Translations under genes and position numbers: made by a program
Shown: piece by piece, positions 33,393 to 64,000 of the stretch
Layout: each line of letters starts with the position of its first letter
Numbering within the stretch: the stretch's first letter is position 1
The notes under the pieces: model-generated
Database searches by the model: none
Told to the model about the DNA's origin: nothing
What the model saw: only the letters and a program-made list of their open reading frames with translations
Assembly (NCBI GenBank): GCA_950295325.1
Contig: OX485809.1
Location: forward strand, 14,446,001 to 14,510,000
Direction of reading: 5' to 3'
DNA length: 64,000 nt
From: Polytrichum commune
Lineage: Eukaryota; Streptophyta; Polytrichopsida; Polytrichales; Polytrichaceae

Positions 33393-34751
33393 ATGGAGTT
33401 TTTGGATGATCTAGCATTTCCAGATGTATTTCTTATTAAGGATCCATATTCTAACATATTACCTCTCTTTCATTCTACTTATGAGGTGGAAGAACAGGTT
33501 CGGCGAAGTATTTTGGGGAAGTTCTTGTGCGATTCTGATCTATTGAACCTTTGGAAAATTCTATATGATGTCGGTTTCGGAGATCACCCGGTGGAGAAGG
33601 ATGACCTATCCAACGCAGTCAGAGAATTGTCTCACGAGATCGAGAAAATCGTTGCACTGTTAGTCAACGATGTTCGCGAATCATACGCCGTGGTAGTGGC
33701 GGCAGTTGTCCTGCTCTCTTATGTATACCTGTATCTCACAGGCTGTGGCGGGTGGGATGCTTCTAGAGCAGTGTCCTCTGGGCCGTTAGATTACAGAGAC
33801 AGTTACATCGCCATAGTTCTCTTCCGAGGCGCCTACGTTTGGATTAAGTTCCGAGACGTTGCTTCTACTAAATCCAAAGGAGTACGACTTTTAGCATCGG
33901 GCAAATACGAGCTCCGGTTCAAACCTCGCAGGGAGAATGGCGTATCTTTCGAATCTATCTACATTCGTCGTTTTGATTCGAAAGCTGATGCAGAAATCGT
34001 ATCTCGGATGCTTGTCTCGTGTTACTCGGACAGAGAGGATTGCGGCGGTCTTGTAGATCTTACAGGAGATGGCCGCAAGCTCTTCCCAATTACTCCAGCA
34101 TTCACTGTGGAAGAGAAAGGACTGTTGGGCGAGGAGAAGCACGAATTGTTCAAAAAGCGAGTGCTGGAGCACTACGAACGCTACAAAACAGAGAAGGATG
34201 CCCTAAACCTGCCGCCGACCTTACCTGGAGCGAATTTGGAGCAGGAGCTTCAAAATCGCCGTCTGCAAAAAGAAAATGAAGATCTCGCGTGTAAGCTACA
34301 ACAGTCTCAGGACCTTCAGCAAGCACTGCAGTTCCGAATTGAGGGATTAGAGCGCCAAGTCCAACATCAGCAAGCACAGCAGAATTTCCAGCAAGCATGG
34401 CAGTTCCAATTTCAACACTTACAGCTCCAAATTGAAGATTTACAGCGCTCGGTCCAAGATCAGCAAGCACAGCAGAATCTCCAGCAAGCACAGCAGTTCC
34501 AGGTCTCAGACTTACAGCTCCAACCCCAACTCCCACATCTTCAGCAACAACAACGTGAGGAGGAGTCGTTGACCATTGACGAGAATTGTGACGTGCCGTT
34601 TGGCACGGAGCCACTTCCAGCGGTGCCCGGGTTTTGGGCGGACATGGACGAGTTTATTAACATGGTGCCATTTGGAGCTGTGCCCGGGGTTGGGGCGGAG
34701 TCCACAAGCTCTTGGGGGGATATCCAAGTCATGGATGAAACCACAACGTAG
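33393..34751 (+). CDS. Gene A: unknown tandem-family protein with hydrophobic segment, possible AP2-like region and Gln-rich coiled coil
   Basis: A single uninterrupted exon encodes 452 residues. The start is the ATG in 'cttgtggaaatggag', conserved in all family members; the six codons upstream begin with GTG and belong to the leader. Visible parts: variable N-terminus (1-85); a strongly hydrophobic stretch YAVVVAAVVLLSYVYLYL (98-115) followed by GCGGWD; a region (144-231) with FRGA, KYELRFKP and IYIRRFDSKADAEIV that I read as a degenerate AP2/ERF-like fold; a charged helix (239-270); a Gln-rich coiled coil (282-388) containing internal repeats of QDQQAQQN-type units; and an acidic/aromatic tail with ADMDEFINM (416-424). 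I do not recognise the family. A membrane-tethered regulator is inference. Codons are GC-richer than the flanking DNA. It could instead be a membrane-anchored scaffold. Confidence 0.8.
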   Translation: MEFLDDLAFPDVFLIKDPYSNILPLFHSTYEVEEQVRRSILGKFLCDSDLLNLWKILYDVGFGDHPVEKDDLSNAVRELSHEIEKIVALLVNDVRESYAVVVAAVVLLSYVYLYLTGCGGWDASRAVSSGPLDYRDSYIAIVLFRGAYVWIKFRDVASTKSKGVRLLASGKYELRFKPRRENGVSFESIYIRRFDSKADAEIVSRMLVSCYSDREDCGGLVDLTGDGRKLFPITPAFTVEEKGLLGEEKHELFKKRVLEHYERYKTEKDALNLPPTLPGANLEQELQNRRLQKENEDLACKLQQSQDLQQALQFRIEGLERQVQHQQAQQNFQQAWQFQFQHLQLQIEDLQRSVQDQQAQQNLQQAQQFQVSDLQLQPQLPHLQQQQREEESLTIDENCDVPFGTEPLPAVPGFWADMDEFINMVPFGAVPGVGAESTSSWGDIQVMDETTT

Positions 34752-35000
34752 GAAGTCAGCAGCCGATTTCGGAGAGAATGTAACTTACATACCTGGGCAC
34801 TCAATTTGCGTTGCTTCTCGCCCCTGATTTCAAGTGGTGTACACATAAATTAGGGTTAAGTGTAAATTAGAAGGATGAATTGAGGAGGAATTGGGTAGCA
34901 TACAGGTGGATTACGCCATTTGGAGTGTAATCGGAAAGTTTGTGTAATCGGAGGGTTCCTTTTAGATTCAGACGCCAACGTGTTTCGTGATTGTACACAT
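34752..35000 (+). other. 3' flank of gene A, conserved with gene B
   Basis: From the stop codon to about 34995 this matches the 3' flank of gene B ('gtcagcagccgatttcggag', 'cctgggcactcaatttgcg', 'tagcatacaggtggatta'). It probably includes the 3' UTR. At 34892-34901 it is uninterrupted where gene B carries a 1.46-kb insertion. Confidence 0.7.
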
Positions 35001-36148
35001 ACACATATACATATAAATAGATTTTGTAGATTTGTTTGTCATCTATATGCTCATGGCTTATTTCAGCACTCTTGGCTCCTCTCACCACTTGTGTGCGGCC
35101 CGAATGATTGAAACTGTAGGAAAGAGCTCAAAAGATTTTTCATGTTTTTGTGGTTTCAGAATGCAGCACAAGGATTTCCCTCTCTAATTGTGTTTTAGGT
35201 CAGTGATACAAGTGTTGGAAGTGGAGAATAATTAGAGATTCCTTCAAAATCGAGGATTTGGTCCCCACTTTCGCTGACTTCATGGTTTATGGTATTGTTA
35301 CTGACGTTTAGAATTTAGGGTTTAGTTGACATTTTAAGGATGTTTATATGCATCAAACATTGTGTCCTTGGCATGTTGTTTTGTGCAGCAATATTAGAAG
35401 ACATAATGGTTGTAGGGTTTCATGGGGTTGATGCGTAAGTGGAGGTATATATGTACTCAAAAGAGTGTTGCGATAGTGTGATTGCATTGTATCAGGTTGT
35501 CGCGGTTCTGAGGTGGTTGTTGAATTCATGGTGCTTTAAATTACGATCCAATTCATGTCTGCGATTGGTATTTTAATTATCCATGACAATATTTGTGAAC
35601 TTATTCATAAGAAGTGTCACTAGAAAAGTTACCAGTGACGTAAAGTACCATATGACACCAAATACACTATTTAGTGTAGTCTATTGGAATAGGGCTTGTT
35701 TCTTAAAAGGAGAGTTTATGTTTGTTAAGGATGATGTGACTGAGTGTATTGTTTAATGGCGATTTGGGAGAATTTATATGTAAGTTCAAGTGCACTTTGT
35801 GGGTGGGGGTTTTGATGGCCCTGGTGATGACGATGGGTTGGAGAACTTTTTAGGCATGTGGGGATAGGACGGGGAGGATAACCCTAGAGGGTTTGGGTGC
35901 CCAACTTGGGTCTCTCATACATACATTGCGGTGTTTTGAAGTTGTATAATAGGAAAGCACATGGTATTGTATTGACATCACTTTTATTTTGGGACATATC
36001 ATTTCATAGCTTGTTGGCTTGTAAGGTTATAAATTTCTCGACATCCACACAATGCATCTTGAAAAGAGTTTGTTGAATAATCTATAACATGTAGTATAAA
36101 TTGATAATTCACAATTGGTATGCATATGCTAAAAGCATTTTGGGATTA
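35001..36148. other. Intergenic region without a supportable gene
   Basis: It includes a fragment of the TACACTAAATA-type MITE right end at about 35575-35690. No domain-bearing ORF is seen. Confidence 0.55.
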
Positions 36149-36156
36149 ACCGCAAC

Positions 36157-36902
36157 CCCGGGTAGGGCACTCGCAAAAAATTATTAAACCATGTGAGAAA
36201 GAATGTAGGGTATTTTTTATTCATTTGTGAGAAAATTTATACAATTCTTCGATGTAATGAAGCACCTCTTCAATTGCAAAGTTGTGTGTATAAAAAAATA
36301 AGGGTACCATATAATGCATCAATTTATCTAATTCTTTCAATCTAAAATAGGGTTGGGAATAGTAGGTAGAGAAAATAATATTGAGGCAGAGGTATACAAT
36401 GCATTTTATGGTGGTCAATGGATGAAAAACTATCCATTTTCAATCCAAATTCCCGAATGAGCTTAGATGTTCATATTTTTTTATATTTTGGTGCTTCTCT
36501 CAAGTTTGCTTGCTTCAAGTTTGTTTGATTTGAACATTGTTTGATGTATGTTTTGGAACAATAGGAGGTCCTAATAATGCTTCAAGTTTTTATGTTTTGG
36601 TACATTGTTTGATGTCTTCAGTCTAGACATGGTTTATTGAATTTTCACTACAAACTTTCAAGAGTCCTATGATTCGTCATTCATGGGGTCAAATATAAAA
36701 ATTATAAGGAACATAGGGTATTAGAAACTAGTTCACTTGCGACTTTATAAATACAAATAGGGTCATCTAAAATGACAAAATTTAGATTTATCAGTACTAA
36801 TAGGGTGTAAAGAATTCCAATTTCTTAGATAAATAGCCCCATGATAAATACCCTTCCGTCGCAGATGGGTTATTAAATACATGTATGAGTGCCCTACCCG
36901 GG
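36157..36902. mobile_element. hAT-like non-autonomous element, 746 bp
   Basis: The ends are inverted copies of CCCGGGTAGGGCACTC. The flanks ACCGCAAC (36149-36156) and ACCACAAC (36903-36910) form an 8-bp target duplication with one mismatch, as for hAT insertions. The right interior ('aaatagcccc', 'aaatacccttccgtcgca') matches the subterminal region of the elements at 49349-49960 and 56977-58169, so this is a third, older member or subfamily. No transposase ORF. Confidence 0.8.
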
Positions 36903-37326: not shown

Positions 37327-37725
37327 ACTACACTAAATAATGTATTTGGTGTCACCAATTATATTTGTTTTGCTCAACGCTAATTGTAAACTGCTTGTGT
37401 AGTGTCACCTACACTATTTATAGACTTAACATTATTCGTTGTTCCTTGTAAATTTTTTTGGGTATTATAGATTTACAATGTTGCAATTACTGTCACTTAC
37501 TAAGTGATTTTTCATCCATCTTTCAATCGTACATGAAAGAGTCCCGTCACATAAACGGTAGATGCGGAATACATCATACTTTGTTTGAAGAATTCGTATT
37601 TGGATGAACTAATTGAAAGTTGGGATGGAAATATTTGTAAACTTAATTTTATAAATCGTGTCATAAGAAAAGTTACCACAATGACATAAAATACCATGTG
37701 ACACTAATGCAATATTTATTGTAGT
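37327..37725. mobile_element. MITE of the 'TACACTAAATA' family, ~400 bp
   Basis: The left end reads TACTACACTAAATAATG and the complement of the right end TACTACAATAAATATTG; the inverted repeat continues through 'gtgtcac'. TA is duplicated at the edges. Relatives lie at 3880-4205 and 39238-39635, with end fragments near 5725-5770, 35575-35690 and 41420-41460. Non-coding. Confidence 0.7.
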
Positions 37726-39237
37726 AGTGGAACTTCACTAGCCAAGATAGAACTAAAGATTGGATTTGAAAAGTTACTTTATGCTAGATTAAGCTCGGGG
37801 GAGGAGAGACGATCTTTAGGTTTCTCTTGTATGGTCAAGTGGTTCGAGCTCGAGACAAACCACAATATTGTTGTTGTGACACTAATCCAATGCATTGAGA
37901 TTGAAAATCTCACGACCCTTGTGTTTTGTGTAGGTTGTGTCTTGTTCTATGTATTTGTTGAGAGAGGGTTGCAACAAACACAAGTTTTATAAGAGTAACA
38001 AACTCATCGTGCGAGCATCGTAAATCACACTAATTCTAGTACTTTACTAGACATTGAGATTGCTATACATGATTATGGTTGTAATGAGTGTGGGAGCACA
38101 CTAATTGGTTAGTCCGGTTCATAACGGACACATGACCAACAAGAAGATGTTGGATATTATGGACAATATGGACAAAAACATCCAACTTGTGGTTTAAAAA
38201 AACCACATGGGAATTGCTAAAAATGCTCTCCATTTGGAAAGATTACCTTGCTTTGCAGTTCGTGAAATGTTCACCAACCATTCATTGGAGGACATCCACA
38301 TTTTTTCAAGCCCCCAACATTTAAACTTTGATTTTAATGACCGAAATTAGTGTAGTTATGGGGTGTGAGAATTCAAATGTAGTGAACATTGGATTTACAG
38401 ACCTTGCTTAGAAATAACACTAAGTACCTTAGTCAGTCCGAACAAGTGTAATTAGAAAATGTGGGTCACTCTAATTGTCTAGTTGGGTGGAATTCACATG
38501 AGTTAAAAAATCCAAGTCATCCTCTTGGTCTTTCTTGACACTTCCGACCAACACCTCACATAAATTCGAATAGTCAACTTATACCAAAAGTAGCATCAAA
38601 TAAAAAATTCATCCAAAATTCCCATGAAAAAACTAATCAATGTGGACCAATATAATTTTAAACTATAGATTTGGCGTGACTGAAAAATTAACGTGGCCGA
38701 CATTATGAATCATAAATAAATAAATAACCAACGTCGGGAAATCCGACGTGAGTTTGAGCTCGTTGGCCCTACCCTGCTCAAAAATCCTCTTGGTGCAGGG
38801 TGGGGTTTACTGCCTACCTTGCGGTGGGTGGGCTCATTCTAAGTCATTGCGATATCTAGAAGATTATTGTGGCTTGCACTAATAAGACGATTTAGGGTAC
38901 TGTACAATTTCGTATTAGTCAATGGCATGATGAAAATGTTGGGGTTTGGAGTGAACATCTTAATACATACAAAGGTTAATTTGGGAAACTTATCTATGCA
39001 CATGTTGACCATGGAGGGCCCTAGAGTACCGAAGGGAGATCAAAATAAGCTATCATTGACTTATTTCTAGTTACCTAAAGTGTTACCCCCTTTACACATA
39101 GTGCATGTACTTGTCTTGCCACTCCAAACTTTTGACTTACGTGATCTAATGGGGTAAACATATATTACGGCCTTTTTGTTGCCAAATTTGGGATCAAATT
39201 CGCATCATGTTTCAACATCAAAGTGGGACACCATATA

Positions 39238-39635
39238 AAGTATTGTAAATAATGTCACATGGTATTATTTTATGTCATTGTGGTAGCTTTTCTAATGACA
39301 CTTCTTGTGAATGGGTTTACAAATACCGTCATGGATGATTGAAATTTGGATGAATTCCATGTCAATAATCGAAACAAAGCTTGGTATATTATGCATCCGA
39401 ACATTCATGTAATGGAATATAGTCATGGATGATTGACATTTGGATGAAAAAAACATACAGTAAGTGACAATAAATGCAAAAGTTGTAAATTTAGAATGCC
39501 CATGTTCTTTTACAAGGAATGACACATAAAATGATAGGTTTAGGTTCAGTGTTGGTGACACCACGACAATGGTTTACAATTAGTATGGAGCAAGACAGTT
39601 AGAATTGGCGACACTAGTCATGGTGTTTAGTGTAG
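39238..39635. mobile_element. MITE of the 'TACACTAAATA' family inside the right arm
   Basis: Reversed relative of 37327-37725: 'cacatggtattattttatgtcattgtggtagc' type sequence at its left and 'gtgtttagtgtag' at its right. It is the counterpart of 3880-4205, so it was present before the block duplicated. Confidence 0.55.
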
Positions 39636-40548
39636 ATGCTCTACTATGACAGTACATGTAATATTGGACCAAGATTATAAGATTATATATGGAAAGACTG
39701 AAAATAAGTCATTGCATTAAACAAGTAGGAAGACAAGTTCACACGATTCCATATGTCTTGGCTTGTCATAAAAGTGAAATTGATATTTATCTTAGTAGCT
39801 TGGAGCCGCAAGTCAATGTAGTGTGTCATTCTATTCAAAAGGTCACGCTAATGATCCTATTTATTGTAATGAGGATGTAACCGTACGCTCAAAGGGGTGA
39901 ATTGTTTTATGCTTCCGTCCATTTTGCATCGAGTGTTTTGGCAACCTATGAGTGAATCTCGCTCTCAATGCTTTGTTGCCTAACTCACCTTTTAATTGCA
40001 ATTGCAAAGATGTTGGATATCATATTCTTCCCTACCTTCCCTCTATAAATTGAACAAGGATGAGCATGACGACATGGAGTTGAATTCAATCTCAACTTCC
40101 TTGAATTATCTTCAATTGTTAAGGGGGTGAGGTAAATAGGCCTTAAATGGACATTTTTTAGCTTTGCACTCACTTTTTCTAGGACAACAAACATGAAATT
40201 AGTGCAAGATGATCAGGAAATCCAAATCATTCATGTAGCCATTTGTCTCATCATTTTTGGAGCTCATATGAATATCTCATTCATTATCAAAGTGCAGATT
40301 TCACATACTCATGAAGTGGTCATATATGTCTCTTTGATCATGTTGACCACTAAATTGAGAATAGTTAGCATTTTTTGATCATGCACTTCAATATTTTTTA
40401 ACACGTGTCATTTCAACATCCATTTGTGGAGTCACACCTAATCACATGCCACTTGAATAATAAGTGTTCAAATTATTGTTGTATTGGAATCAAACACATT
40501 TGATTTACTGTGCATCTTCGTATAGTGAATAAGGCCTTAAAAGAAGAC

Positions 40549-40571
40549 CCCACACACACACACACACACAC
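40549..40571. repeat. CA microsatellite
   Basis: About eleven CA units, counterpart of the GT run in the left arm. Confidence 0.9.
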
Positions 40572-40745
40572 AATATAAGAGTATGTGTATTTCTAGTTGG
40601 TTAGAATTTTTTTTTGACTCTAATGTTGTTCTAGACATGAATTATGATGGTGATTCACCTTTGAGTTGGCATGAGTTGTCTATATGTACTCCTGAAATAT
40701 GCATCACAAAAATAAGATGGGTCAATGAATAATTGTGGCTTCTTT

Positions 40746-41639: not shown

Positions 41640-44085
41640 ACGAGGTCTAGATATCTTAATATCACGAGAAGTCGGATCAGAGAGAGAAAAAAATCCAAAT
41701 AACACACATGTCTACCTTAGCAACTAGCTAGTGTGAAGGCATTTGGCTCCACTTTAAAAACTAACCTACATACTATTGCTTGCTAGATGAAACAATTGCC
41801 ATGTGTGAAAGCCACTTAACTAAACCTTATTAAAAAAAATCTCAGGTGCAAGTTCTTGTAGACTCAATTTTCAATCCGATTATTGCTCATACTCCATGGT
41901 AGATTTGCAGCAAATGCAACATAAGTTTCGTTGGGTAAATCCAATTGACAGAAGTTAGAGGACATGCAAATCGAATTGAATAACATCCACACACGTTATC
42001 TATGTTCACTTGACGAGGTGTGTTGGACGTCCTCAAGTCAATCCTTTTGTTGAGGTTGCCCAAACATATTTCATTTGTAATGGAACCTAAACATGCTACT
42101 TATTAACCTTTAAAGGCCACCGAGACCCCGATGGAGGTTTGGATACAGGAATGATGAAGTACTTTTTGGTTTTTGTTGTTAATTCCATTTTTAGCTATTG
42201 CTTGATAAAGAATCCTTTGTTTAAATAGATTTATCCTTTTAGTGAGCTTGTCCAATCATAGAAATATAGTGGAATAGGGTGAAGATGGGTGCAAGCATGA
42301 TCCAATGGACAACTCTTGATGCTTTCGAAGGTTCAAGTGAAGGTGATTCAAAACAATATACTAATTTTGAATTTTATGAAAAGAGGATCATAAACATGTA
42401 AAAAGCATATTGATCTACAAAAGATAAGTAATTTATGTTGACCAAAAACAATCTCAAAAAAATGTTACATATCCCAAATATCTGGTGATCTTTAGCGCTT
42501 AGAAATGTTATGAACTACTTAGAATTTGTAGGTGTAGAATATGAAATAAGCTCCATGACTTGAATGAATTCCACCTGCAAGGTGGAGATCAGTAACGACC
42601 TTACCATGTCCCCGATTGAGTCTAATGTGGGTACACCTAATGTGACAATGACATACAATGTACTATGTCACACAAGTAGAAAATGTACATATTTGAAAGA
42701 AAATTATTACAAGAGGTTGTCAATGAGTTTCCCTTCAAGCATTTAGATGATGTTCACCTTGGCTACCACCCCTCCCTAATTTCTTCCATTTTTATTTTTA
42801 TTTTTTTAACAAAAAAATCATGTTCCTCTTTTGCATTTGCTAGTGTGTTCATGTAAGTGTTGTTATAAAACCCTTATATTTGTTGAAATGTGGAAAGTGG
42901 TCGTAATAGGTGCAACAACCTTAGGTTTGAAAGGCCTCCATGATGAAGGATTAAGAAGGTGTTTGTAATTGCATTGAAGACTTCTCTCCTTACAAGATAC
43001 CAAACACGTCCATGCTATTCCTCTGTGCAAGGTATGTTAATTGCACATTTGGCAATGGCCAACGTAGTATGTATGTTATCCATCCCATGCGCGAAGAGGC
43101 TCTTCATTCATGCTTGCTATGCATAGGACCTAGCGTGTATATTTATCATATGTATATGATCTCTCATTTTAAAAATGTCCCTTGAGACTTCATTATGGGT
43201 CTTATTTCATTTGGGGGTCATTAGTTTGGGGAGCTTCCAGAAATGTTTAGCATTAAATTTCAACAAACAATGAGAACATGGGACAAAAAGAGGCATGGAC
43301 GCTGGGTGTAAGGCATCCTAATGGAATCCAAGTCATGTGTGCGTATTACTTGAATAAATTATGATGACCATCAAAACCAAATTGAAGGATACATTGCACG
43401 ATCCAAAGCCTTCAATGTAGTATTTAATTAATTGTGTTAAATTCACGTCTTTTGTTTTCCTTGGTTATTTCATTGCGTCTTGCATGCATGTATTTCTTTC
43501 CCTTGGAATAGATCATCACTGTACCTTACATAATACATAAGAAGCAACGAAAGATCCAAGGAATATAGAGAGATAGAGAGACCAACCCTAACTTCTACAG
43601 GATCGATCTAGATCTGACGACCAAACTATCCCCTGGCACATTACTCGCGGCAATGCCCTGGAGCAGAGGCCGCCAGTGCACACAAATAAGGGCCCCCGCC
43701 CTTGAGCATTATCTACCGGAGTGTCCGGGGAGAGTTTTGGGCATAATGGGTTAAACTCCTCGGGCTTCCAAGTCCATGCAAGTCACATGTTGTGATCTTT
43801 AAGCTTTCCTTTCAGAATTCGAGGTATTTTCCATAGATTCTTCTAAAATAGTGGGTAATTCTTCTGGAGTCTTGAACTTCATACCGATTATTTCTCAAAC
43901 TCAACTGGTTCATCTGTAACGAGCAGTCGGGGTTCTCCATTAATCTACCACTTACCAGGGGTGCCATTGTAAAGGCAAGCACCCGGGTCGCCGAGTCGCA
44001 ATAGAAAGGAAATGTTATTTTATGACCATCCCATGCATGTGGGCCCTTTTACACATTAAATAAATTAGACTAATTAAATCCCCTT
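41640..44085 (+). repeat. Array block, copy 2 (upstream of gene B)
   Basis: The first ~230 bp ('ctaccttagcaactagctag', 'tgaaagccacttaac') match 51730-51915; from 41868 onward it follows the common block order to 'catcccatgcatgtgggc'. It retains a segment (43060-43950) missing from copy 1, but is shorter than copies 3 and 4 around 43560. Confidence 0.85.
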
Positions 44086-44266
44086 TGCTTCGCTTCGCCA
44101 CTCTTCTCCCCACTCTTCCCCACTCTGTCGCCGACGTTACTCGCACGCCTTATAAGCAAATCCACCCTCCACTCCATCACCAAGTTACGCTTCCGCATCT
44201 CGCTAATGCTGCTTCATACCTTCACGCTGCTCCGAAGATTAGCTGCCTGTGTTACGACTTGTGGAA
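44086..44266 (+). promoter_or_regulatory. Core promoter and leader of gene B
   Basis: A pyrimidine-rich block (44096-44128) and a TATAAG box at 44151-44156, 116 bp upstream of the ATG, in the context 'cgcacgccttataagcaaat' shared with genes C and D. Confidence 0.75.
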
Positions 44267-45592
44267 ATGGAGGGTTGTGATAGTGGCCCTGGGGATGCGA
44301 TGGCTCCTATCGATCAATGTTTCCGGCTGTACGACGTGTGGATGCAGGACATTCCGGACATGGGGACCGATGTTCAGGAACGTGCTCTTTTAAAGTTGGG
44401 AGCTCAGGCTCGTCGGGGTATTTTGGGGAAGTTCCTGGACTCTTCTGATGTATATGAACTTATCTACTATCTAGAGCACCGCATTACGGAATGTCCCGTG
44501 TTGGAACGAGATCAAATGAACCTATTCAACGCAATCAGAGAATGCTTTTACGAGATTGAGAAAATCTTTGCACCGTTAGCAAATGATGTGTGCGAAGCAT
44601 ACGCAGTGGTAGTCGCGGCAGTTGTCCTGCTCTCTTATGTATACCTGTATCTCACAGGCTGTGGCGGGTGGGATGGGTCTAGAGCAGTGTCATCTGGGTC
44701 GTTAGATTATAGAGACACTTACATCGCCATAGTTCTCTTCCGAGGCGCCTACGTTTGGATCAAGTTCAGAGACGTTGCTCCTACTAAACGTATTCCCGCA
44801 GATGCAGTACAACAAATAAGAACCTCGTGCAAAGATGGTCGCATCAAAGAGAAGTACGAGCCGCGGTTCAAACCTCGGAAGGAGAATGGCGTATCCTTCA
44901 ACTGGATCTACCTTGGCCGTTTTGATTCGCCTGCTGATGCAGAAGTCGTGTATCGGATGGCTGCTTCGTGTTACGATTACGGCAAGGGTTACGGTACTCC
45001 TCTGGATCTTGCAGGAGATGGCCGCGAGTACTTCACCATTATTCCAGAGTTCACTCCGGCAGAGAAAACCCTGTCGGGCAGGGCGAAGCAGGAATTGGTG
45101 AAAGAGCGAGTGCAGGAGCTTTACAAACGCTATAAAACAAAGAAGGATGCCCTAAACCTGCCGCCGACCTTACCTGGATCGAATTTGGAGCAGGAGCTCC
45201 AAAATCGCCGTCTGCAATCGGAGATTTTGAGGGAGCAACAACAAAAGGAAGATCTCGCTCGTCAGCTACAACAGTCTTGGAATCTTCAGCAAGCGCAGAT
45301 GACCCAAATTCAAAACTTACAGCTCCAGGTTGAAGGTTTACAGCGTCAATTTCAAGATCAGCAAGCGCAGCAGAATTTCCAGCAAGCACAGCTGTTCCAA
45401 GTCCGAAACTTACATCCCCAACCCCAACTCCCACATCTTCAGCAACAACAACATGAGGAGGAGCAGTTGACTATTCACGAGATTTGGGACGAGTTGATGG
45501 GCACGGAGCCATTTCCAGAGGAGGCCGGGTTTTGGGTGGAGTCCACAAACTTTTGGGGGGATATGCATCTGATGGATGAAACCACAACGTAG
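44267..45592 (+). CDS. Gene B: second full-length member of the unknown tandem family
   Basis: Single exon, 441 residues, ending in the same MDETTT tail as gene A. The N-terminal ~85 residues differ strongly from gene A, but the hydrophobic segment YAVVVAAVVLLSYVYLYL (112-129), GCGGWD and the LDYRD...FRGAYVWIKFRDV stretch are almost identical, also at DNA level. The possible AP2-like region is clearer here: FRGA (159-161 area), KYEPRFKP (196-203), WIYLGRFDSPADAEVVYRMA (213-232). It has about 14 extra residues (within 174-195) relative to gene A. The Gln-rich coiled coil (305-400) is shorter by part of a repeat, and the tail lacks the DMDEFINM motif but keeps DELMGTEPFPEE and FW pairs. Function unknown; see gene A. 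The 3' flank is interrupted by a Mutator-like insertion beyond the stop. Confidence 0.8.
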   Translation: MEGCDSGPGDAMAPIDQCFRLYDVWMQDIPDMGTDVQERALLKLGAQARRGILGKFLDSSDVYELIYYLEHRITECPVLERDQMNLFNAIRECFYEIEKIFAPLANDVCEAYAVVVAAVVLLSYVYLYLTGCGGWDGSRAVSSGSLDYRDTYIAIVLFRGAYVWIKFRDVAPTKRIPADAVQQIRTSCKDGRIKEKYEPRFKPRKENGVSFNWIYLGRFDSPADAEVVYRMAASCYDYGKGYGTPLDLAGDGREYFTIIPEFTPAEKTLSGRAKQELVKERVQELYKRYKTKKDALNLPPTLPGSNLEQELQNRRLQSEILREQQQKEDLARQLQQSWNLQQAQMTQIQNLQLQVEGLQRQFQDQQAQQNFQQAQLFQVRNLHPQPQLPHLQQQQHEEEQLTIHEIWDELMGTEPFPEEAGFWVESTNFWGDMHLMDETTT

Positions 45593-45735
45593 GAAGTCAG
45601 CAGCCGATTTCGGAGACAATGTAACTCACATACCTGGGCACTCAATTTGCGTTGCTCATCGCCCCAGATTTCAAGTGGTGTACAAATATATTAGGGTTAA
45701 GCGTAAAGGGAACGGAGGAATTGAGGAGGATTTAG
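45593..45735 (+). other. 3' flank of gene B, first part
   Basis: Matches the 3' flank of gene A up to the 9-bp duplicated AGGATTTAG at 45727-45735, then resumes after the insertion at 47199. Confidence 0.75.
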
Positions 45736-46024
45736 GGCCGGGGATTCGTGGCACTCATGTATTTTCATTAGTGAGAGTTCATTCATCTTTGCGGATGAGA
45801 TGAACCACTTTAGACACTACCTCGCGTCGTCGGCTCCTTGTCTCAAGGGTTTCAAACATACCAAGTTTTAGTAGTTCTAAATAATCCTAGTCTAATCTAA
45901 TACTTAAGGCAATAATACAAAGGGGGTTAGATAAAATAAAAATGCCTCATATAGAAACAAGTGGGTGCATCATGCATTGCCAACCTATCATTACTAGTCC
46001 GGTTATTTTTAAGAAATTGATATG

Positions 46025-50840: not shown

Positions 50841-51461
50841 AACACGATATTCAATATTTTGAGAGAGTGGGATCCTCTCAAAATAATATTGGCCATTTAT
50901 CAACCTAAAAGTCATGTTAGGTTGATAAATACTAGATTATACTTTAGATGTGTAGTTTCCATTAAAATGAGAGTATGTTAAGCTGAAAAATCGAGTCATT
51001 TAGGTTGAGTCAACCTAAATGAGGACAATATTTTGTCAATTTAGGTTGAGTCGACCTAAATGAGGACATTATGTTGTCAATTTAGGTTGAGTCGACCTAA
51101 ATGAGGACAATATGTTAGTCAATTTAGGTTGAGTCGACCTAAATGAGGACAATATTTTGTCAATTTAGGTTGAGTCGACCTAAATGAGGACAATATTTTG
51201 TCAATTTAGGTTGAGTCGACCTAAATGAGGACACTATGTTGTCAATTTAGGTTGAGTCGACCTAAATGAGTCGATTTCCCAGCTTAACATACTCTCATTT
51301 TAATGGAAATTACAGTGGAATTTACGGCGGAAAATCAAATGTTATTTTTTTACTTATACTCTACAACTTTCCAGTGGTTTTCATTTCATTCTTGGATTAA
51401 TAGTTTGCTTTTATGTACTCTCAATTCACTGGAAAACTCTCATTTTAATGAATATTGTGTT
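50841..51461. mobile_element. 621-bp nested palindromic element with an internal 41-bp tandem array
   Basis: The ends AACACGATATTCAAT and the complement of the right end AACACAATATTCATT form an outer inverted repeat of ~27 bp; AACT flanks both sides (50837-50840, 51462-51465). Inside is a second, better pair of ~45-bp arms (about 50957-51000 and 51264-51308, 'ccattaaaatgagagtatgt'). Two small hairpins lie on the left ('attttgagag' with 'ctctcaaaat'; 'tatcaacctaa' with 'ttaggttgata'). The centre is a tandem array (51000-51270). No protein is encoded. Non-autonomous; class unknown. Confidence 0.85.
51000..51270. repeat. Tandem array, seven copies of a 41-bp unit
   Basis: Units start at 51000, 51041, 51082, 51124, 51165, 51206 and 51247 (one spacing is 42), the last being partial. 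Each has two dyads: 'atttaggt' to 'acctaaat' around GAGTC, with GTCGAC at the centre in units 2-7, and 'gacaa' to 'ttgtc'. Units differ at only a few positions. Confidence 0.95.
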
Positions 51462-55312: not shown

Positions 55313-55566
55313 TAAACGAGCCGCTAGGGGTCAAAGGCTCACCGCTGGTGGGAGAAGAAGTCCGCAAGGAAGTTGGCAAAGCAGGAAGTTGACGAATCTC
55401 AACCTTCGTACCGAACGGAAAATCATGAGGGACGAACTCCCGAAAAAAATCCCATTAAATTAAAGGATAACTCTAATCTGCGAAACTCAATATATATGCA
55501 CGTACTTAAATTGTACTGTGGCCTTCTGTTCACACTTCTATTATCCAACAAATTGGGCGCATGCAC

Positions 55567-55707
55567 CTTGAGTAAACCGATCCGGAAGTAATCGCATCCA
55601 TAAGCATAGAAAATTGCACGAAGCAGTGATGGATTACTACTATGCTGTAAAAATTCATGCTCCCAACGTCGCCACAGCTGGGCACAACATGTCAGTTTAC
55701 TTGGCTC
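55567..55707 (-). pseudogene. Isolated exon resembling an ABCC13/MRP7-type ABC transporter
   Basis: Read on the minus strand, a 141-bp (47-codon) open exon is bounded by an AG acceptor ('gatttgcag') and a GT donor ('ctcaag|gtgcat'). The peptide includes LWRRWEHEF, NPSLLRAIFYAYG and YFRIGLLK, which resemble the segment leading into the first membrane domain of plant ABCC13/MRP7-type transporters. Neighbouring exons were not found on either side; downstream on that strand lies array repeat DNA. It is most likely a captured or leftover exon. The family assignment is by eye from remembered motifs and needs a search. Confidence 0.4.
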
Positions 55708-56968
55708 CTGCAAATCATGCGAAAAGTTTATAAATATTAATCTTCTTACCTCAAGTGTTAAGAACCGTGTAGGTTTGGACTTAAATGATTTTATTTCAGA
55801 ACCTGTTTCAAAAATTATTTCAAGTTACATATCCTACAAAAAGTAGGCGCAAAGCTAAAAGTGTCCATTTATGGCCCATTTACTTGAGGGTTGATTTTTT
55901 TCCCATTTGTAAGGTACAAAAAAAGAACAACATTGCAAAATTATGCATCACCCACAAGATTGATACTATAACCCCAACTCCTAAATGATTGATACTATAA
56001 CTCTAAATCTTTGTCACGCCACATATTCCACAACAATATAAATGTTTGAAAAAAAAATTCGTATGTTTTGACCAAAAATCATGCATATCACTTCTGTGAG
56101 ACCACGATCGATCCCATGGTTGAAATCGTTGCATACGCCTTATTTGAATTCGTTCGTGTACCTCTTTTTTGAACCTCATCATATTAGTTATGCCTTACTT
56201 CAACCAAGCTATTGAATTCAACATATTAAGTTGTTTGCAGGCTTGTTTGTGTGAGAAAATCAGGGTTGTGGATTTATGATATGAGTAGAGCTTTATTTTT
56301 GTTTAGCACTATAACTTCGTTTAATTGTTCTTGTAGGATATGCACAATGACAAGCATTTATGTATGACTTTGAATAGATCGTATCACACGTGTAGGTGCA
56401 GCGCAACAATACACATTGCAATTGATTATTCGCACAGATGAAACATAACTGATTATGTTGAAACATCTCCCTGGCCAGTGCACAAAAGTAGTTTTCTAGA
56501 TGAAGTGTTTTTGGAATATGAGGATGTCATAACATGCTCCCTTGTATACTAATAGGTCAAATTGAATTGCTCTTGCAAGAGAGTTTTATATACTGTATTG
56601 AATTTTCAGTGAAGGAGAACTGGAATTGTGAGGTTGAGATGGAATGTGCGTTGAATGTATGTGTTGCATTTCTTTCGTCTGAGAAGCTTTGAAAGTACAT
56701 TGTAGATCGCAAGAGATATCTTCTCTATAGATCCACAAATGTAACTGTGAGTGCAGAATCTATCACAGATTGAAGTTACGATAATTTCAAAAACAGAGAC
56801 ATCTCCAAGAACCACCAAACTGCCTCTTTGAATGTTTGAGAAACAAAATGCAGTAGCAACAACAATTAGCATGAGTTTCTGAGAAAGTTTGTACTACAAA
56901 ATAACCTTGCAGAGAATAGCGACTTTGCACCACCATGATGACTAAAAAATACTAAGTCTAGTGAGTGT
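55708..56968. other. Intergenic region without a supportable gene
   Basis: About 55820-55890 matches the end motif of the dispersed repeat at 3400 ('gcaaagctaaaagtgtccat'). A minus ORF at 56606-56872 has no recognisable domain. Confidence 0.5.
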
Positions 56969-56976
56969 GATCTCTT

Positions 56977-58169
56977 CACGGGGAGGTCACTTAGTGCATT
57001 TTAAAAACGACGTGCGGCATAATATAGGGAAAGTTAAAATCATTTGACATAAAAATTATAAAAGAATTCCAAATAATGAAGGGTCCATTAAAAGTACATA
57101 AGCCCATTACAAGTAAAATAGATAGGTATAAAATATGGGCCATTCCATTTTAGTAAAAATAATATAGGAGCTGAAAATAAGGATCTTAGGATGTATGTTT
57201 AGTAGAATCAATTTCGTATGCATGCCTCACGAGGGATGGATGAAAAATTACTCATCATTCACCCAAAAATGAATGAAATTGGAAGCCTAACTCTATGCCC
57301 GACTTCTCTTGGTGGTTTTTCTCCCCTTCTCTTTTGAAACTCTTCAACCCGATTGTAGGGCGCCCGTTTGTGCACAACATTTGAGCCTCGCCGTTGTGTT
57401 TAGGGTTTAGGATTGCTTGTCGTCATCCTCTTCTCCAATCTTGTGTAGAGTTTTTTAGCCATGCTGTGTGATCTGATGCAGAAACCTTGAAGAGCAGGTC
57501 TGAAACGATCCACAAAGATTAGTGATCATTGAGTGTTGTCGGTATTCTGATTGTTAGTCAGTTATGCTCCCGAGCTTTGCAGGAACTAAACAAATGAGGT
57601 GTACACTCTTGATAGGAATGATTCAGAGCAACTGTCCAAGTTTGTGACAGAGCGAACTATATAAGATTCATGACCAAGCTTAAAGTGTTTCACACTATAT
57701 GGTTTTGGTCTTCACTAGCATGTAAAGTGATTTTGAATAAAGGATTTTTATGGAGCGGGTGTTGTATTTGTGAACACACACACAATCTTGTTGTGTTTGT
57801 AAACACACACTCAATCATGTTGTGTTCCATCCTAAGTCTTCTTTTTGTATTTTCACTTTAAGTTTTTGTACTTGGTTTTTGCAATGGTACGTAATTTTTA
57901 TATTTTTTTGTTGCCATGCTTTTCCCATCACTTTTGCATTGCATACATTCTTAAATTCAGTTTTTTTAATTAAAAGGAATATAGACTACAAAAAATTTCA
58001 ATGACATGGGCATTATAAGTAATGGTAGGGTACAAAAAAATAGGCCATTTTAGAATATTATGTAATTATAGGGAGCTTTTAATTCGTGCCTTGGAGGTAA
58101 ATAGCCCCTAAACAAATACCCCTCCGCCGCACGTGGTACACAAAAATCCTACTGAGTGACCTCCCCGTG
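56977..58169. mobile_element. hAT-like non-autonomous element, 1193 bp
   Basis: The ends are inverted repeats CACGGGGAGGTCACT. A perfect 8-bp duplication GATCTCTT flanks it (56969-56976 and 58170-58177). The outer ~220 bp on each side match the element at 49349-49960; the middle is longer and unrelated. ORFs inside are below 100 codons and show no transposase motif, so it is non-autonomous. The perfect flanks suggest recent insertion. Confidence 0.92.
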
Positions 58170-58177
58170 GATCTCTT

Positions 58178-60335
58178 TCTAAAGGGGTTACCCTTACCCC
58201 AACCTACTTTGCTAGCAAGATCCAACTTGCAAGATTCCCAGCCTAGCCATATTCAGCACATCAAAGAACATGGCCAGCTAGTGTTGCAAGCCATGTGGGG
58301 CCTCAGCAAGCCAACAAACATTAAAAAAAAATTAAATGGATTTCAAGAAAATTTATGTATCTCAACCCATGGTGTTGGTCCAACCATTGGCTTACCTTCA
58401 CAAAGTGAACAACACTCAAGTTGAGTATTATTCATTTTGTCACAAAGGTGGCCCAACATAAATGGGGCATGATCCTCCCAAAATTCCCAGTGCTAAGGTG
58501 CAAAATTCAAGTGTTGAGTATTTTAACTAATAATTGTGTGTTTCTATTTGAAAAGAAAGGTATGTGCAGAGGCAATGAAACTATCTATTGTAGGCGTGCT
58601 TAGGGATTTTGAGAGTTATTAATTAGTTGGGTGAGTTTCCATGTAGGCCACTCACCCACCAAATTCTAGTGGGAATAAGGACAAACTTGCCCAAATGTAG
58701 ATGGAATCGGGTGGGGGACTAGGGTTCATATGTGCCAACTAGCTTTTCTTATCTTCTCCAATTCGGGCCCACCTACTAGCCTCCTCCTCTAGGTTACCAT
58801 TAGTGGACCTCCTCTTTCAATCATTTGGTGACCGGCACTGGTAGGTTAAAAAAAAAAGTGTTAGTGGGAGTCTAAACTGATACTATTTAAGTAAAATTGG
58901 ACTAAATCAAGAATTGAAACATGTTGAAATCTATCACAAGATCCAATGATAAGATTGTATTATAAGATCCTTCGATAGAATATGCAGAATTGATTATGAT
59001 ATTATTATAGCAATTCTTTTTGTTGTATTTTCACTATGCAACGTTAATCTTATTTATATGAATTTATCAAAAAATAAATATTTGAGTTTTTTCATCATAT
59101 TTTAATCGCATAACATTAAGATATCTCCCATAAAAATTCGGTGTTGATAGAAATTTATGAGAGGACCCACCCATAGACATGAAGCAACCAAAAAGTCCAA
59201 CTTTTGAGAATTTGTCCAATTTTACTTAAATGTGAATTTCTAACAGCCCATGTCCATGACCCTCCATAATCTAATAAACTACCATAATGTGATTGGTTGG
59301 CAGCGTGTGCTTATCTGCATGGGAACTCCTCCAACCTACCCACAAATCATAATTTTGGGAGCAAGAGAGCTCTCACATTGTATGAAGTTGTTGTCTGCAA
59401 AGTCCTTCAAAGATGGACCAAACTAGGACTCATTGAAAGAACCTCTCTTTGAATGACTTTTTCATATAAAGACAAGTCATTCACTTGTCCTATATTGAAG
59501 GTTAATATGAAAGATAGGTGAAACTCTTTTGACCTCCCCTTTCCATCTCATTTTTTTTGGAAGAACTTTTGGACCTAAAAGAAGTGGCTTGTCGCAAGAG
59601 TGCTCTACCTTATTATTATCTTGCACATGGGACTACTTTTGGTTGGCCAGTTCCGGTTGGTTGCCAAGTTTTGGCCCATTTCATAGACCACCCGTGGGTC
59701 TCTTCCCATAGGGCAAAGCCAATAAACCACGTCTAGGACATGTCATCCTAAATCTCATATTTGTTCATGCAAGGTGAGTTGTGCCCACCCATCCTATCAT
59801 AGCAAGCTAGAAAGTCAAAGAAATTTTAGTGTGATGTTACTCTTTTATCATGTAAAAACTTTAAGTGTATTTGGATGACTTTACGAATACATTCTCAGAT
59901 TCTTCTTTTAGCCAACTCACCCAAGTTTGACCAAGAGAGTTTCTAGATAAGTCTATTGGTATTTTGAACTCTTTCTTCTCTTTGTTGTGGACCTTATTAT
60001 TTAGAACTAGATTTTAAACCAAACTTATCATCTTCTATCCACATATTTGAAGCTAATCATTCTTTAATAATCAATCTGAAACCCCTATCAATGCTCAAAT
60101 GACACATACGGGCACCCACATTATCTCCGCATCCAAAGTGAAGAGAAGAGGGAAAACACAAGAGTGAGGCGTAGGCGAAGAAACAAACGGGGAAGACAGA
60201 AAATGACAGGATTACGAAGATACTAAGATTGGTAGATTTGGAACAACATGGACGGAGTCTCCAAGGTAGCAAAGAACGACGTGGCCTCGAGAGAGTCCAG
60301 AAGCCCATTTCATCCCCCATAGACTTCTTATCCAC
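58178..60335. other. Intergenic region without a supportable gene
   Basis: About 59600-59720 resembles 6075-6310. The sequence upstream of gene C here is not the array block, unlike genes A, B and D. Short ORFs have no recognisable domain. Confidence 0.55.
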
Positions 60336-60518: not shown

Positions 60519-60830
60519 ATGGAGGGTTGTGATAGTGGCCCTTATGGAGTTGTAAGGCATCTTATCGATCTTTGCTTTGAGCTGCAAGACAAGTGTATGC
60601 GGGCCTCCCAGTCGAGGAGCTATGCTCAGCGACATGATCTTTCAAAATTGCGAGAACAGACTCCTCAAGGCATTTTGGAGAAGGTCCTGGACACTTATGA
60701 TGTGTGTAAGTTTATCGATTTTCTATACTCCCTCCAACTGGAAAATTCCACGTTGGTAGGAGATGACCTATTCAACGGAATCAGAGAGTGCTTTTCCGAG
60801 ATTGAGAAAATCTTTTGTAATGGAACCTAA
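60519..60830 (+). pseudogene. Gene C: truncated member of the tandem family fused to repeat DNA
   Basis: The frame opens with MEGCDSGPYG, close to gene D, and runs through the variable N-terminal region to EIEKIF. It then leaves the family and continues CNGT before a stop. At that point the DNA changes to 'tgtaatggaacctaaacatg', which is internal to the array block (42073 in copy 2). The hydrophobic segment, the AP2-like region and the coiled coil are all missing. The 103-codon ORF keeps an intact promoter and could still be transcribed, but is best called a pseudogene. Confidence 0.85.
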
Positions 60831-63400
60831 ACATGCTATCTATTAATCCTTCCATGCCACCGAGGCCCCAATGGAGGTTTGGAGACAGGAATGATGAAGT
60901 ACTTTTTTGGTTTCTTGTTGTTAATTCCATCCTTTTAGCTATTGCTTAATAAAGAAACATGTGTTTAAATAGCTTTATCCTTTTAGTGAGCTTGCCCAAT
61001 CATAGAAATATAGTGGAATAGGGTGAATATGGGTGCAAACACGGTCCAATGGACAACTCTTGATCCTTTCGAAGGTTCAAGTGCAGGTGATTCAAAACAA
61101 TATACTAATTTTGAATTTTGTGAAAAGAGGATCATGAACATGTAAAAAACATATTGATCTACAAAAGATTATAAGCAATTTATGTTGACAAAAAAAAATC
61201 CCCGAAAAAGTCCACATATCCCAAATATATGGCGACCTTTAGGGCTTAAGAATGTTATGAATTACTTAGAAATTGTAGGTGTAGAATATGGAATAGGCTC
61301 CACGACTTGAATGAATTCCACCTCCAAGGTGGAGATCAGTAATGATCATATCATGTCCTTGATTGAGTCTAATGTGGGTACACCTAATGTGGCAATGACC
61401 TATAATGTATTATGTAACGCAAGTAGAAAATTTACTTATTTGAAAGCAAATTATTAGAATAGATTGTCTATGAGTTTCACTTCAAGCATTTAGATGATAT
61501 TCACCTTGACAAACACCCCTCCCCAATTTATTTATTTTATTTTTGTTTTAAAAAATCGTGTTCCTCTTTTGCATTTGCTAATGTGTTCATGTAAGTGTTG
61601 TTATGAAACCCTTATATTTGTTGAAATGTGGAAAGTGCCCGTAATAGGTGCAACAACCTTAGGTTTGAAAGGCCTCCATGATGAAGGTTTAAGAAGGTGT
61701 TTGTGATTGCATTGAAGACTTCGCTCCAAGTTACAAGATACCAAAGACGTCCACGCTTTTCCTCTGTGCAAGGTATGTTAATTGCACATTTGGCAATGGC
61801 CGACGTAGTATGTATGTTATCCATCCCATGCCCGAAAAGGCTCTTCATTCATACTTGCTTTGCATAGGAGCTAGTGTTTATATTTATCATTTGTATATTA
61901 TCTCTCATTTTAAAAATGTCCATGGGGACTCATTATGGGTCTTATTTCATTTGGGGGTCATTAGTTTAGGAAGCTTCCATAAATGTTTAGCATTAAATAG
62001 CAACAAACAATGAGAACATGAGACAAAGAGAGACATGGATGTTAGGGGTAAGGCAACATATTGGAATCAAGTCATGTGTGTGTATTCCTTGAACAAATTA
62101 CGATGACCATCAAAACCAAATTGAAGGACACATTGCACGATCCAAAGCCTTCAATGTAATATTTAATTAATCATGCTAAATTCATGTCTTTTGTTTTCCT
62201 TGGTTATTTCATTGCTTCTTGCATGCTTGTATTTCTTTCCATTGCAATAAATAGTCATGATCTTGGAGGTTACTGTCCCTTACATGAGCATAATACATAA
62301 AGAGCAACAGAAGCTCCAAGGAATATTTTTACATGTGGGAGAGGGAGAGAGACCCTAAACCTTTGTTTTGTGGGACTATATATAGTGATATTCCCAATAA
62401 TGTGGCACCTCTAGGAATTAGTCATTCCACATATTTATGGGATGATTTCTCTAAATAACCAAGGTTGTTGTGATTGATTGGATATAGATCGTGCACAAAG
62501 TGAGGGCCACTTTAGATTATGGCTCAGGGCTGTGATCATGAGATTGCGAGGGCCTTGAAACTCATCTGAAGTCACTACAATGAAAATTTGGATTTTGTAA
62601 TATTGAATAAATATGATCGTTGGCCTTCAAGTGTAAGATATGCAATCCTTATCAGCGGTAAAGCTTAGCCGTGCAGTTTTGACTGCTAGATGATGAGTGA
62701 AATCAATGATCTGAATGACTTTTTCCCAAAAAGTTCTGATGTGATCCACGGCGGACAATCACACCGTGTGAGGCACCCGCCTTTTACACATGAAAATTCA
62801 ATTTGTGGCATGGATTTATGACTTGCATATTAAAGCTCACGCAACTAAGTTGTTTGTTCTTTGTTGGCAGATGCAGAATTATAACCAACAGTCACCGGCC
62901 ACCTTGAAATTCGACGGAGCTTCTACAGGATCAATCTAGATATAAGGACCCGAAAATCCTCTGGCACTTTACGTGCAACAAAGCCCTCAAATGGAATGGC
63001 TCCCGCCCTCGGAGTAGGCCCTTACTCACACAACGCCCGGGCCCTAGGGCATTATCTACCAGTGTCTGGGGAGAATTTTGGGCATAATCGGTAAGCGTCT
63101 CGGGCTTTCAAGCCACAGGTTGTCATCTTTAGCCTTTTCTTTATTAATTTGAGATGTATTCCACAGATTCTTCAAAAATGCTGCGTAATTCTCCTGAAGG
63201 TCTTGAACATGAACCCGTCATTTCTCAAACTCAACTGGTTCGTCTGTAACAAGCAGTCGGTTCTCCATTAATCTACCACTTACCACTGGTGCAATTGTAA
63301 AGACAAGCAACCGGGTCGCCGAGTCGCAATAGAAAGGAAATGTTATTTCATGACCATCCCATGCATGGGGGCCCTTCTATACATTAAATAAATTCGACTA
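60813..63400 (+). repeat. Array block, copy 4 (upstream of gene D)
   Basis: It begins mid-block at the junction with gene C and follows the order of copy 3 to 'catcccatgcatgggggcc', without the 616-bp insertion seen in copy 3. Confidence 0.85.
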
Positions 63401-63589
63401 AATCCCCTTCCTTTCGCTTTGCCACTCTTCCCCACTCTTCCCCTCTCTGTCGCTGAAGTTACTCGCACGCCTTATAAGCAAATCCACGCCTCCACTGCGT
63501 CACCAAGTTACGCTTCCACATCGCGCTATTGCTGCTTCATACATTCACGTTGCTTCGGAGATTAGTTGACTGTGTTGCTACTTGTGGAA
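63401..63589 (+). promoter_or_regulatory. Core promoter and leader of gene D
   Basis: Pyrimidine-rich block (63409-63450) and TATAAG box at 63473-63478, 117 bp before the ATG, conserved with genes A-C. Confidence 0.75.
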
Positions 63590-64000
63590 ATGGAGGGTTT
63601 TGATAGTGGCCCTTATGGAGATGAGAGGCGTCTTATCGATCTTTTATTTGAGCTGCAGGACAAGTGTATGCGGGCCTTCCAGTCGAGGAGCTATGCTCAG
63701 CGACGTGATCTTTTAAAGTTGCGAGAACAGACTCTTCAAGGCGTTTTGGGAAACGTCCTGGACTCTCCTCATATATGTAATCTTATCGATTCTATATACT
63801 CCCTCCTAATGCAAAATTCCGAGTTGGAACGAGATGTCCTATTAAACGGAATCAGAGAATGCTTTTACGAGATCGAGAAAATCATTGCAACTTTAGTAAA
63901 TGATGTACGCGAAGCATACGCCGTGGTAGTGGCGGCAGTTGTCCTGCTCTCTTATGTATACCTCTATCTCACAGGCTGTGGCGGGTGGGATGCTTCCAGA
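63590..64000 (+). CDS. Gene D: family member, 5' part only (runs off the window)
   Basis: An open frame of 137 codons starts at the conserved ATG (MEGFDSGPYGDERR) and continues without a stop to the last base. The N-terminal region is close to gene C and different from A and B. It reaches the invariant hydrophobic segment YAVVVAAVVLLSYVYLYL and GCGGWDASR, with DNA almost identical to gene A there. The rest lies beyond the window, so intactness is unknown. Confidence 0.8.
   Translation, partial: MEGFDSGPYGDERRLIDLLFELQDKCMRAFQSRSYAQRRDLLKLREQTLQGVLGNVLDSPHICNLIDSIYSLLMQNSELERDVLLNGIRECFYEIEKIIATLVNDVREAYAVVVAAVVLLSYVYLYLTGCGGWDASR

What the first reader, a model, noticed from the sequence alone, without database searches (positions are those of the whole stretch)
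33393..64000. Unrecognised tandem gene family: hydrophobic segment, possible degenerate AP2-like region, Gln-rich coiled coil and acidic tail
Genes A, B and D (and broken C) share a layout I cannot match to a named family. The stretch with FRGA, a basic KYE-RFKP strand, (I/W)IY-(I/L)-(G/R)RFDS and an Ala-rich helix resembles the order of AP2/ERF strands and helix (known pattern: YRG..., WVAEIR, W/YLG-F/Y-D-T, then AAxAYD). Together with a Gln-rich coil and an acidic aromatic tail this would suit a transcription factor, and the hydrophobic segment upstream would make it membrane-tethered. This is inference; identity to AP2 is low.
Basis: partly seen in the sequence, partly recalled or inferred. 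Interest (0 to 1): 0.75.

Follow-up and report, generated by a model that had tools for sequence, protein, structure and literature searches.

The report
Plant AP2-derived genes with fast-evolving heads
A plant genome carries a tandem row of genes whose middle part appears to descend from an AP2 DNA-binding domain that has lost most of its usual DNA-contacting residues, joined to a front part that seems to change faster than neutral DNA, as recognition proteins do.

Summary
A (33393-34751) and B (44267-45592) are intact intronless frames, C is a truncated head, and D is intact but runs past the window. They belong to a nine-place array on one chromosome, with diverged copies elsewhere.

Pfam finds no AP2 in A or B, but profiles of the middle region match AP2: probability 90% against AP2 domains of the same genome, 0 of 60 column shuffles as good; WRI1 is the best of 177,635 PDB sequences, E 2.2e-5 over two domains. 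TPR proteins with an AP2-like domain in the same genome bridge the gap.

True strand 1 is degenerate, and the Arg170 and Trp172 positions are changed, so ordinary AP2 DNA binding is doubtful.

Unasked but most striking: the first ~100 residues are hypervariable, omega about 2.0-2.1 (2dlnL 4.5-13.5 against omega=1), while the body is constrained (0.46-0.68).

Best reading: an AP2-derived, coiled-coil, possibly membrane-held family whose head is under diversifying selection, perhaps a recognition protein. Function is inferred; no usable structure was obtained.

The parts
33393..34751 (+). Gene A, intact intronless CDS, 452 aa
   Evidence: open frame from ATG to stop
44267..45592 (+). Gene B, intact intronless CDS, 441 aa
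   Evidence: open frame from ATG to stop
60519..60830 (+). Gene C, truncated: head only, 103 residues and own stop; likeness to D ends at about 60812
63590..64000 (+). Gene D, 5' part (head, hydrophobic segment); frame continues intact beyond the window
44267..44566 (+). Hypervariable head of B (about aa 1-100)
   Evidence: pN 0.31-0.32 for aa 1-88 against 0.02-0.04 for aa 119-328; omega 2.0-2.1
44597..44653 (+). Hydrophobic segment of B (aa 111-129), possible membrane helix
   Evidence: mean Kyte-Doolittle 2.19 over 19 residues; 8 of 1000 shuffles as high
44696..44779 (+). Conserved pre-AP2 segment of B (aa 144-171, contains FRGA), shared with the C3 and TPR relatives
   Evidence: alignment; matched
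44801..44980 (+). AP2-derived region of B (about aa 179-238): degenerate strand 1, KYEPRFKP, IYLGRFDS, helix
   Evidence: hhalign and hmmsearch
33876..34031 (+). AP2-derived region of A (about aa 162-213)
   Evidence: alignment to B and relatives
45185..45454 (+). Gln-rich stretch of B, predicted helical; a motif unit occurs 1-2 times in the seven intact copies and 7 times in the copy at C7:14429957
45455..45589 (+). Acidic, aromatic C-terminal tail of B
55317..60335 (.). About 5.0 kb of unit 3 without counterpart in unit 2, between its upstream part and the promoter of C
   Evidence: alignments break at 55316 and 60336; a short search found no target-site duplication or terminal inverted repeat

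Best explanation
These genes encode a family built on a relic AP2 domain. An ancestor related to the TPR + AP2-like proteins on chromosome 3 gave rise to shorter proteins with a different N-terminal head, a hydrophobic helix, the conserved FRGA-containing segment, an AP2-derived core that has lost most of its DNA-contacting residues, a Gln-rich coil and an acidic tail. The head differs strongly between neighbouring copies and carries more amino-acid change than neutral change allows; the body is held constant. Most likely each copy recognises, through its head, a partner that itself changes quickly (a pathogen molecule, or a rival or self marker), oligomerises through the coil and passes the signal on through the conserved body, perhaps while held at a membrane. 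Shown here: gene structure, AP2 kinship by profile, head/body contrast in selection. Inferred: recognition, oligomerisation, membrane location, signalling.
For: AP2 kinship: 12-sequence profile of C7+C3 members against 24 AP2 domains of the same genome, probability 90.4%, score 37.8; 0 of 60 column shuffles reach it (largest 15.6), reversed 10.3. hmmsearch of the 7-row profile A4 against 177,635 PDB sequences: WRI1 first at E 2.2e-5, next hit (an antibody) 0.065. With four TPR-type rows added, WRI1 2.9e-7, and five of nine hits are AP2 proteins. Head: dN>dS in 14 of 15 pairs of six copies; ML omega 2.12 (5 copies, 2dlnL 10.0), 2.08 (7 copies, 13.5), 2.04 (5 ungapped copies, 7.2), 2.12 (4 ungapped copies, 4.5); body 0.46 (5 copies, 2dlnL 9.7) and 0.68 (7 copies, 5.1). 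The head is coding: no stop in frame 0 in 8 of 8 heads, 2-8 stops in each other frame; in the seven heads aligned every internal gap is a multiple of 3. A search with the head of D finds only this array, 8 of 8 hits at E up to 10.
Against: No expression, localisation or interaction data, and no usable structure (mean pLDDT 45.8; second job not accepted). The WRI1 E-value sums two domains; the best single domain has E 0.032 and AtERF1 is not among the hits of that profile. C3 members alone against AP2 reach only probability 40.7%. Single members give no Pfam AP2 hit save one TPR relative below the cut-off. pS is also higher in the head (0.16-0.24) than in most of the body (0.07-0.14), so head and body may differ in age or gene conversion as well. 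The head/body boundary was set after a first look; all copies come from one genome; the truncated copy C is included. The C3 cluster has a barely alignable N-terminus too, but there pN and pS are alike. Gene A may keep a strand-1 remnant.
Confidence: 0.4

Rival explanations
1. Membrane-tethered AP2-type transcription factor: the hydrophobic segment holds the protein at a membrane, cleavage frees the C-terminal part, the AP2-like domain binds DNA and the acidic tail activates transcription.
For: AP2 kinship, hydrophobic segment in A, B, D, Gln-rich stretch and acidic aromatic tail (likeness to activation domains is recalled). A KGVR in gene A could be a strand-1 remnant (by eye). The passage says one DNA-binding AP2 domain (TaERF4a) has Pro at the Arg170 place, so that loss alone is no bar.
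Against: Arg170 and Trp172 positions changed in A, B, D; no Arg at the 150/152 places of B and D (residues). The hydrophobic peak is reached by 386 of 1000 shuffles in c3_31263 and 665 of 1000 in tpr_56575. It does not explain the head's excess of amino-acid change.
Confidence: 0.22
2. Head variation comes from conflict within the genome or between gametes: a killer/protector, drive-like or compatibility locus, with the head as the specificity part.
For: Tandem array with a hypervariable head, a head-only copy C, coil unit number changing between copies; the head of D is found only in the array.
Against: No segregation or population data; no recognised toxin or antidote domain in A or B by Pfam.
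Confidence: 0.15
3. Proteins without a recognition role, with a head evolving under relaxed constraint or with mixed histories by gene conversion after duplication.
For: The C3 relatives look nearly neutral (median omega 0.86-1.46 by region) and three of seven C3 places are frame-broken; head pS exceeds body pS.
Against: In the C7 array the head exceeds omega 1 in four of four codon fits (2dlnL 4.5, 7.2, 10.0, 13.5) while the body is constrained.
Confidence: 0.2

Closest known systems
AP2/ERF domain family (PF00847; WRI1, AtERF1)
   Same: Register of strand 2, strand 3 (IYLG-F-D/E) and helix; E-x-R of strand 2 retained in most copies
   Different: Degenerate strand 1, changed Arg170/Trp172 positions; A and B give no Pfam AP2 match; extra hydrophobic and coil parts
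TPR + AP2-like proteins of the same genome (C3:56.56-56.81 Mb, four copies, frames of 960-1027 aa)
   Same: FRGA-like segment, AP2-like core, following IP/helix stretch
   Different: TPR array in place of the head, different C-terminal part, no Gln-rich coil seen; median omega 0.17-0.61 by region
C3 31.2-32.9 Mb cluster of the same genome
   Same: Hydrophobic segment, FRGA segment, AP2-derived core, Gln-rich C-terminal stretch
   Different: Longer N-terminus without detectable kinship to the C7 head (hhalign probability 2.8%), near-neutral evolution
Plant recognition genes in tandem arrays such as NLR receptors (recalled)
   Same: Tandem array, conserved body, a part under diversifying selection
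   Different: No NB-ARC, LRR or kinase match in A or B

Membership tests
AP2/ERF (PF00847) | Match above the curated Pfam cut-off (33.3 bits) | tested here: not met
   No AP2 hit for A or B at E up to 10; best relative 18.5 bits as an excerpt, 14.3 as a whole frame; 1 of 11 members of A3 matches, E 0.0021; no locus of this family among the 118 listed AP2 matches of the genome
AP2/ERF (PF00847) | Profile similarity in the strand 2 / strand 3 / helix register | tested here: met
   hhalign against own-genome AP2 with controls; WRI1 best of 177,635 PDB sequences
AP2/ERF (PF00847) | Strand-1 YRGVR element (recalled) and residues tied to GCC-box binding (Arg150, Arg152, Arg170, Trp172 of AtERF1) | tested here: not met
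   Alignments: Arg170 and Trp172 positions changed in A, B, D; 150/152 not Arg in B and D; A has a KGVR by eye; a C3 member aligns YRxxR
AP2/ERF (PF00847) | Three-stranded sheet packed on one helix | tested here: inconclusive
   AF2 mean pLDDT 45.8; second job not accepted
AP2/ERF (PF00847) | Sequence-specific DNA binding | not testable with these tools
   needs biochemistry
Membrane-tethered transcription factors | Membrane helix | tested here: inconclusive
   Hydropathy 2.14-2.19 in A, B, D; shuffles reach it in 8 of 1000 for B and 31 of 1000 for A; not above chance in two of four relatives tested
Membrane-tethered transcription factors | Working DNA-binding domain on the released fragment | tested here: inconclusive
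   AP2-derived, but most of the residues tied to binding are changed
Recognition genes under diversifying selection | omega above 1 in the recognition part, below 1 in the body | tested here: met
Recognition genes under diversifying selection | Known or shown partner | not testable with these tools
   no interaction or population data

The most novel reading that the evidence does not exclude
A plant lineage turned an AP2 transcription-factor domain into the core of a new, tandemly expanded class of recognition proteins, immune or self/non-self, with a hypervariable head in front of a membrane-held oligomeric body.
Probability: 0.25. Interest if true: 0.75.

Novelty: new variant of a known kind. 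Interest (0 to 1): 0.52.

Why it matters
If right, it shows a DNA-binding domain co-opted into something else, with intermediates preserved in one genome, and it names a compact set of genes whose heads can be tested for recognition. Fast-evolving recognition families other than NLR and kinase types are, as far as I recall (not searched), little described in such plants.

Tried and rejected
FRGA as AP2 strand 1: rejected, because in the TPR proteins the same segment (LGAY...KFR) is followed by a linker (44 residues from its end to YCGV in the copy at C3:56575) before their own strand 1; in the C5:8735 fragment the linker is only about 14 residues, but the order is the same.

Direct Pfam and single-sequence PDB searches gave nothing useful. 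Weak Pfam names (TFIIA, Acb2_Tad1, DUF6230, GD_AH_C and a few others) fall far under their cut-offs, mostly in the coil or the helix behind the core. The AP2-like place C5:25659 gave no Pfam family at E up to 1, although it aligns with AP2 by eye.

Head origin: no kinship to the N-termini of the C3 or TPR relatives (hhalign probability 2.8% and 0.8%); a search with the head of D hits only the array.

Mobile-element origin of the 5.0 kb stretch in unit 3: exact repeats of 5-12 bases at the two edges and inverted ends of 9 bases or more in the outer 60 were looked for and not found; not resolved.

Literature: eight searches ran. Among the titles and abstract beginnings listed (15 of 22 papers, 4 of 6) none describes a TPR+AP2 or AP2-derived hypervariable family; two searches returned nothing. 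Only one passage of PMC3602543 was read.

The AF2 model is too poor to compare, so no fold search was made.

The first omega=1 fits held kappa at 2 because my parser missed the estimate; one search repeats them over a grid of kappa and reads the omega values. The 1000-base upstream distances are noisy (indels) and are not used. The printed alignment lacks A, C7:14429957 and C5:8735 because my pattern missed them; A is aligned. Profile A3 holds 4 of 8 C7 copies, 3 of 4 long C3 frames and 4 TPR-type rows; A4 holds the first seven of these.

On checking I lowered the best explanation from 0.45 to 0.40 and AP2 descent from 0.85 to 0.8, because gene A may keep a strand-1 remnant, the WRI1 E-value rests on two domains, and head pS is raised too; the transcription-factor rival went from 0.20 to 0.22.
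Full report
Observation. Genes A and B are intact intronless frames at 33393-34751 and 44267-45592; D starts at 63590 and leaves the window; C is a head-only frame of 103 residues. The window lies at C7:14446001-14510000 of a 407.8 Mb genome whose contigs C1-C7 are 77.9, 70.3, 59.2, 59.1, 52.9, 44.7 and 42.1 Mb. Seven large contigs and TPR-kinase proteins made me think of a moss, perhaps Polytrichaceae; this is recall and was not tested. Repeats confirm tandem units spaced about 8.7-10.8 kb that include non-coding flanks.

The family in its genome. The search with B gave 26 matches. Nine places form the C7 array (14.43-14.575 Mb): seven intact genes (A, B, D and the copies at 14523231, 14534716, 14548305 and 14573492), a copy on the other strand at 14429957 whose frame ends early in the tail, and C. 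Others are a decayed copy on C5 (four stops), seven places on C3 at 31.18-31.31 and 32.91-32.94 Mb, four of them with long frames (626-658 aa), and a TPR protein at C3:56575537. A search with part of that protein gave 29 matches: three more TPR copies; two places on C5 with the pre-AP2 segment, each in two pieces (10523449-10524083 and 8735146-8735607); an AP2-like place at C5:25659406; the C3 and C7 families; and four new places at E 0.29-0.85, of which three (C5:30887286, C3:51531037, C3:51502071) are over-cut-off AP2 genes and one (C5:30561164, three stops) is not.

AP2 kinship. A and B have no Pfam AP2 match, and none of these loci is among the 118 AP2 matches listed. A TPR relative scores 18.5 bits, E 0.0025, as an excerpt and 14.3 bits, E 0.053, as a whole frame, under the 33.3 cut-off. 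Profiles do better. C7+C3 (12 sequences) against 24 AP2 domains of the same genome: probability 90.4%, score 37.8; C7 alone 74.8%, 31.1; TPR group 94.9%, 45.3; C7+C3 against the TPR group 97.0%, 64.9. In each of these four, 0 of 60 column shuffles reached the score (largest shuffle score 19.1), and the reversed profiles scored 10.3-17.9. C3 alone against AP2 gave only 40.7% (no shuffles made). hmmsearch against 177,635 PDB sequences with seven C7+C3 rows puts WRI1 first at E 2.2e-5 over its two AP2 domains (best single domain 0.032); the other eight hits, E 0.065-1.7, are antibodies and one terpene cyclase, and AtERF1 is not among them. With four TPR-type rows added, WRI1 is 2.9e-7 and five of nine hits are AP2 proteins. 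I take AP2 descent as likely (about 0.8).

FRGA lies inside a segment (GSxEFRxxYxxIxLxxGAYxxxKFR) that in the TPR protein at C3:56575 ends 44 residues before its own strand 1. In B and D strand 1 is degenerate. A passage of PMC3602543 ties Arg150, Arg152, Arg170 and Trp172 of AtERF1 to GCC-box binding. The last two are replaced in A, B and D, and the first two are not Arg in B and D in the alignment, which is uncertain there. Gene A reads KGVRLLASGKY, which by eye resembles the canonical strand 1 and could keep one of these arginines; one search aligns it otherwise. The E-x-R of strand 2 is kept in most copies. The same passage says that TaERF4a has Pro at the Arg170 place.

The head. In six copies (B, C, D, 14523, 14534, 14548), over 97 gap-free codons, dN exceeds dS in 14 of 15 pairs (mean 0.286 against 0.153; in a codon bootstrap dN-dS is 0 or less in 1 of 300). 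The 300 bases upstream differ by JC 0.08-0.11 among the five intact copies, and by 0.27-0.32 where C is involved. In 30-column windows over six intact copies, pN is 0.31-0.32 for B residues 1-88 and 0.02-0.04 for 119-328; pS is 0.16-0.24 and 0.07-0.14 there; two windows at B 365-422 also have pN (0.08) above pS (0.02). Codon ML: head omega 2.12 (five copies, 97 codons) and 2.08 (seven copies, 82 codons), 2dlnL 10.0 and 13.5 against omega=1; body 0.46 and 0.68, 2dlnL 9.7 and 5.1; tail 1.67, 1.4. Without gaps: five copies 2.04, 7.2; four copies 2.12, 4.5. Frame and indel controls show that the head is coding. A search with the D head finds only the array. Against a general rule, the C3 cluster has median omega 0.86-1.46 by region (its first residues barely align, with pN and pS alike), and the TPR cluster 0.17-0.61.

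Other parts. The hydrophobic segment stands out in the window genes and in two of four relatives tested. The Gln-rich stretch is 35-41% Gln in the seven intact copies, with a motif unit 1-2 times in them and 7 times in the copy at 14429957. The AF2 model makes helix 304-378 of B (block means mostly 63-80) and helix 271-295 (63-78) and is otherwise of low confidence.

Explanation. A relic-AP2 body with a diversifying head and a coil fits a recognition protein better than a transcription factor. Recognition is inferred from selection alone; partner, location and mechanism are unknown. Confidence 0.40.

Limits. Relatives outside this genome could not be searched (one search says G000 has no relatives here), so spread among plants, age and species are open. 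The head/body boundary was chosen. Literature was seen only as listings and one passage.

Noticed in passing
C3:54.72-54.90 Mb of the same genome (L058, L059): TPR proteins in frames of 798-820 aa; the two that I read end in what looks like a protein kinase domain, and their TPR part is related to that of the TPR + AP2-like proteins (kinase read by eye).
   Followed up: partly
window 55317-60335: About 5.0 kb without counterpart splits tandem unit 3 between its upstream part and gene C; no target-site duplication or terminal inverted repeat in a short search.
   Followed up: partly
window 60519-60830: C is cut close to the head/body boundary and still has an open head of 103 residues; whether it is expressed as a head-only protein is unknown.
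   Followed up: no
window 2871-5768 and 37681-40745: Inverted pair of long copies, 85-88% identical; 32-2853 also holds internal duplications at 75-92%.
   Followed up: no
window 50998-51270: Tandem array of a 41-base unit, 6.6 copies.
   Followed up: no
window 22001-26000: GC 0.45-0.48, against 0.32-0.44 in the other 2-kb bins except 44001-46000 (0.475).
   Followed up: no
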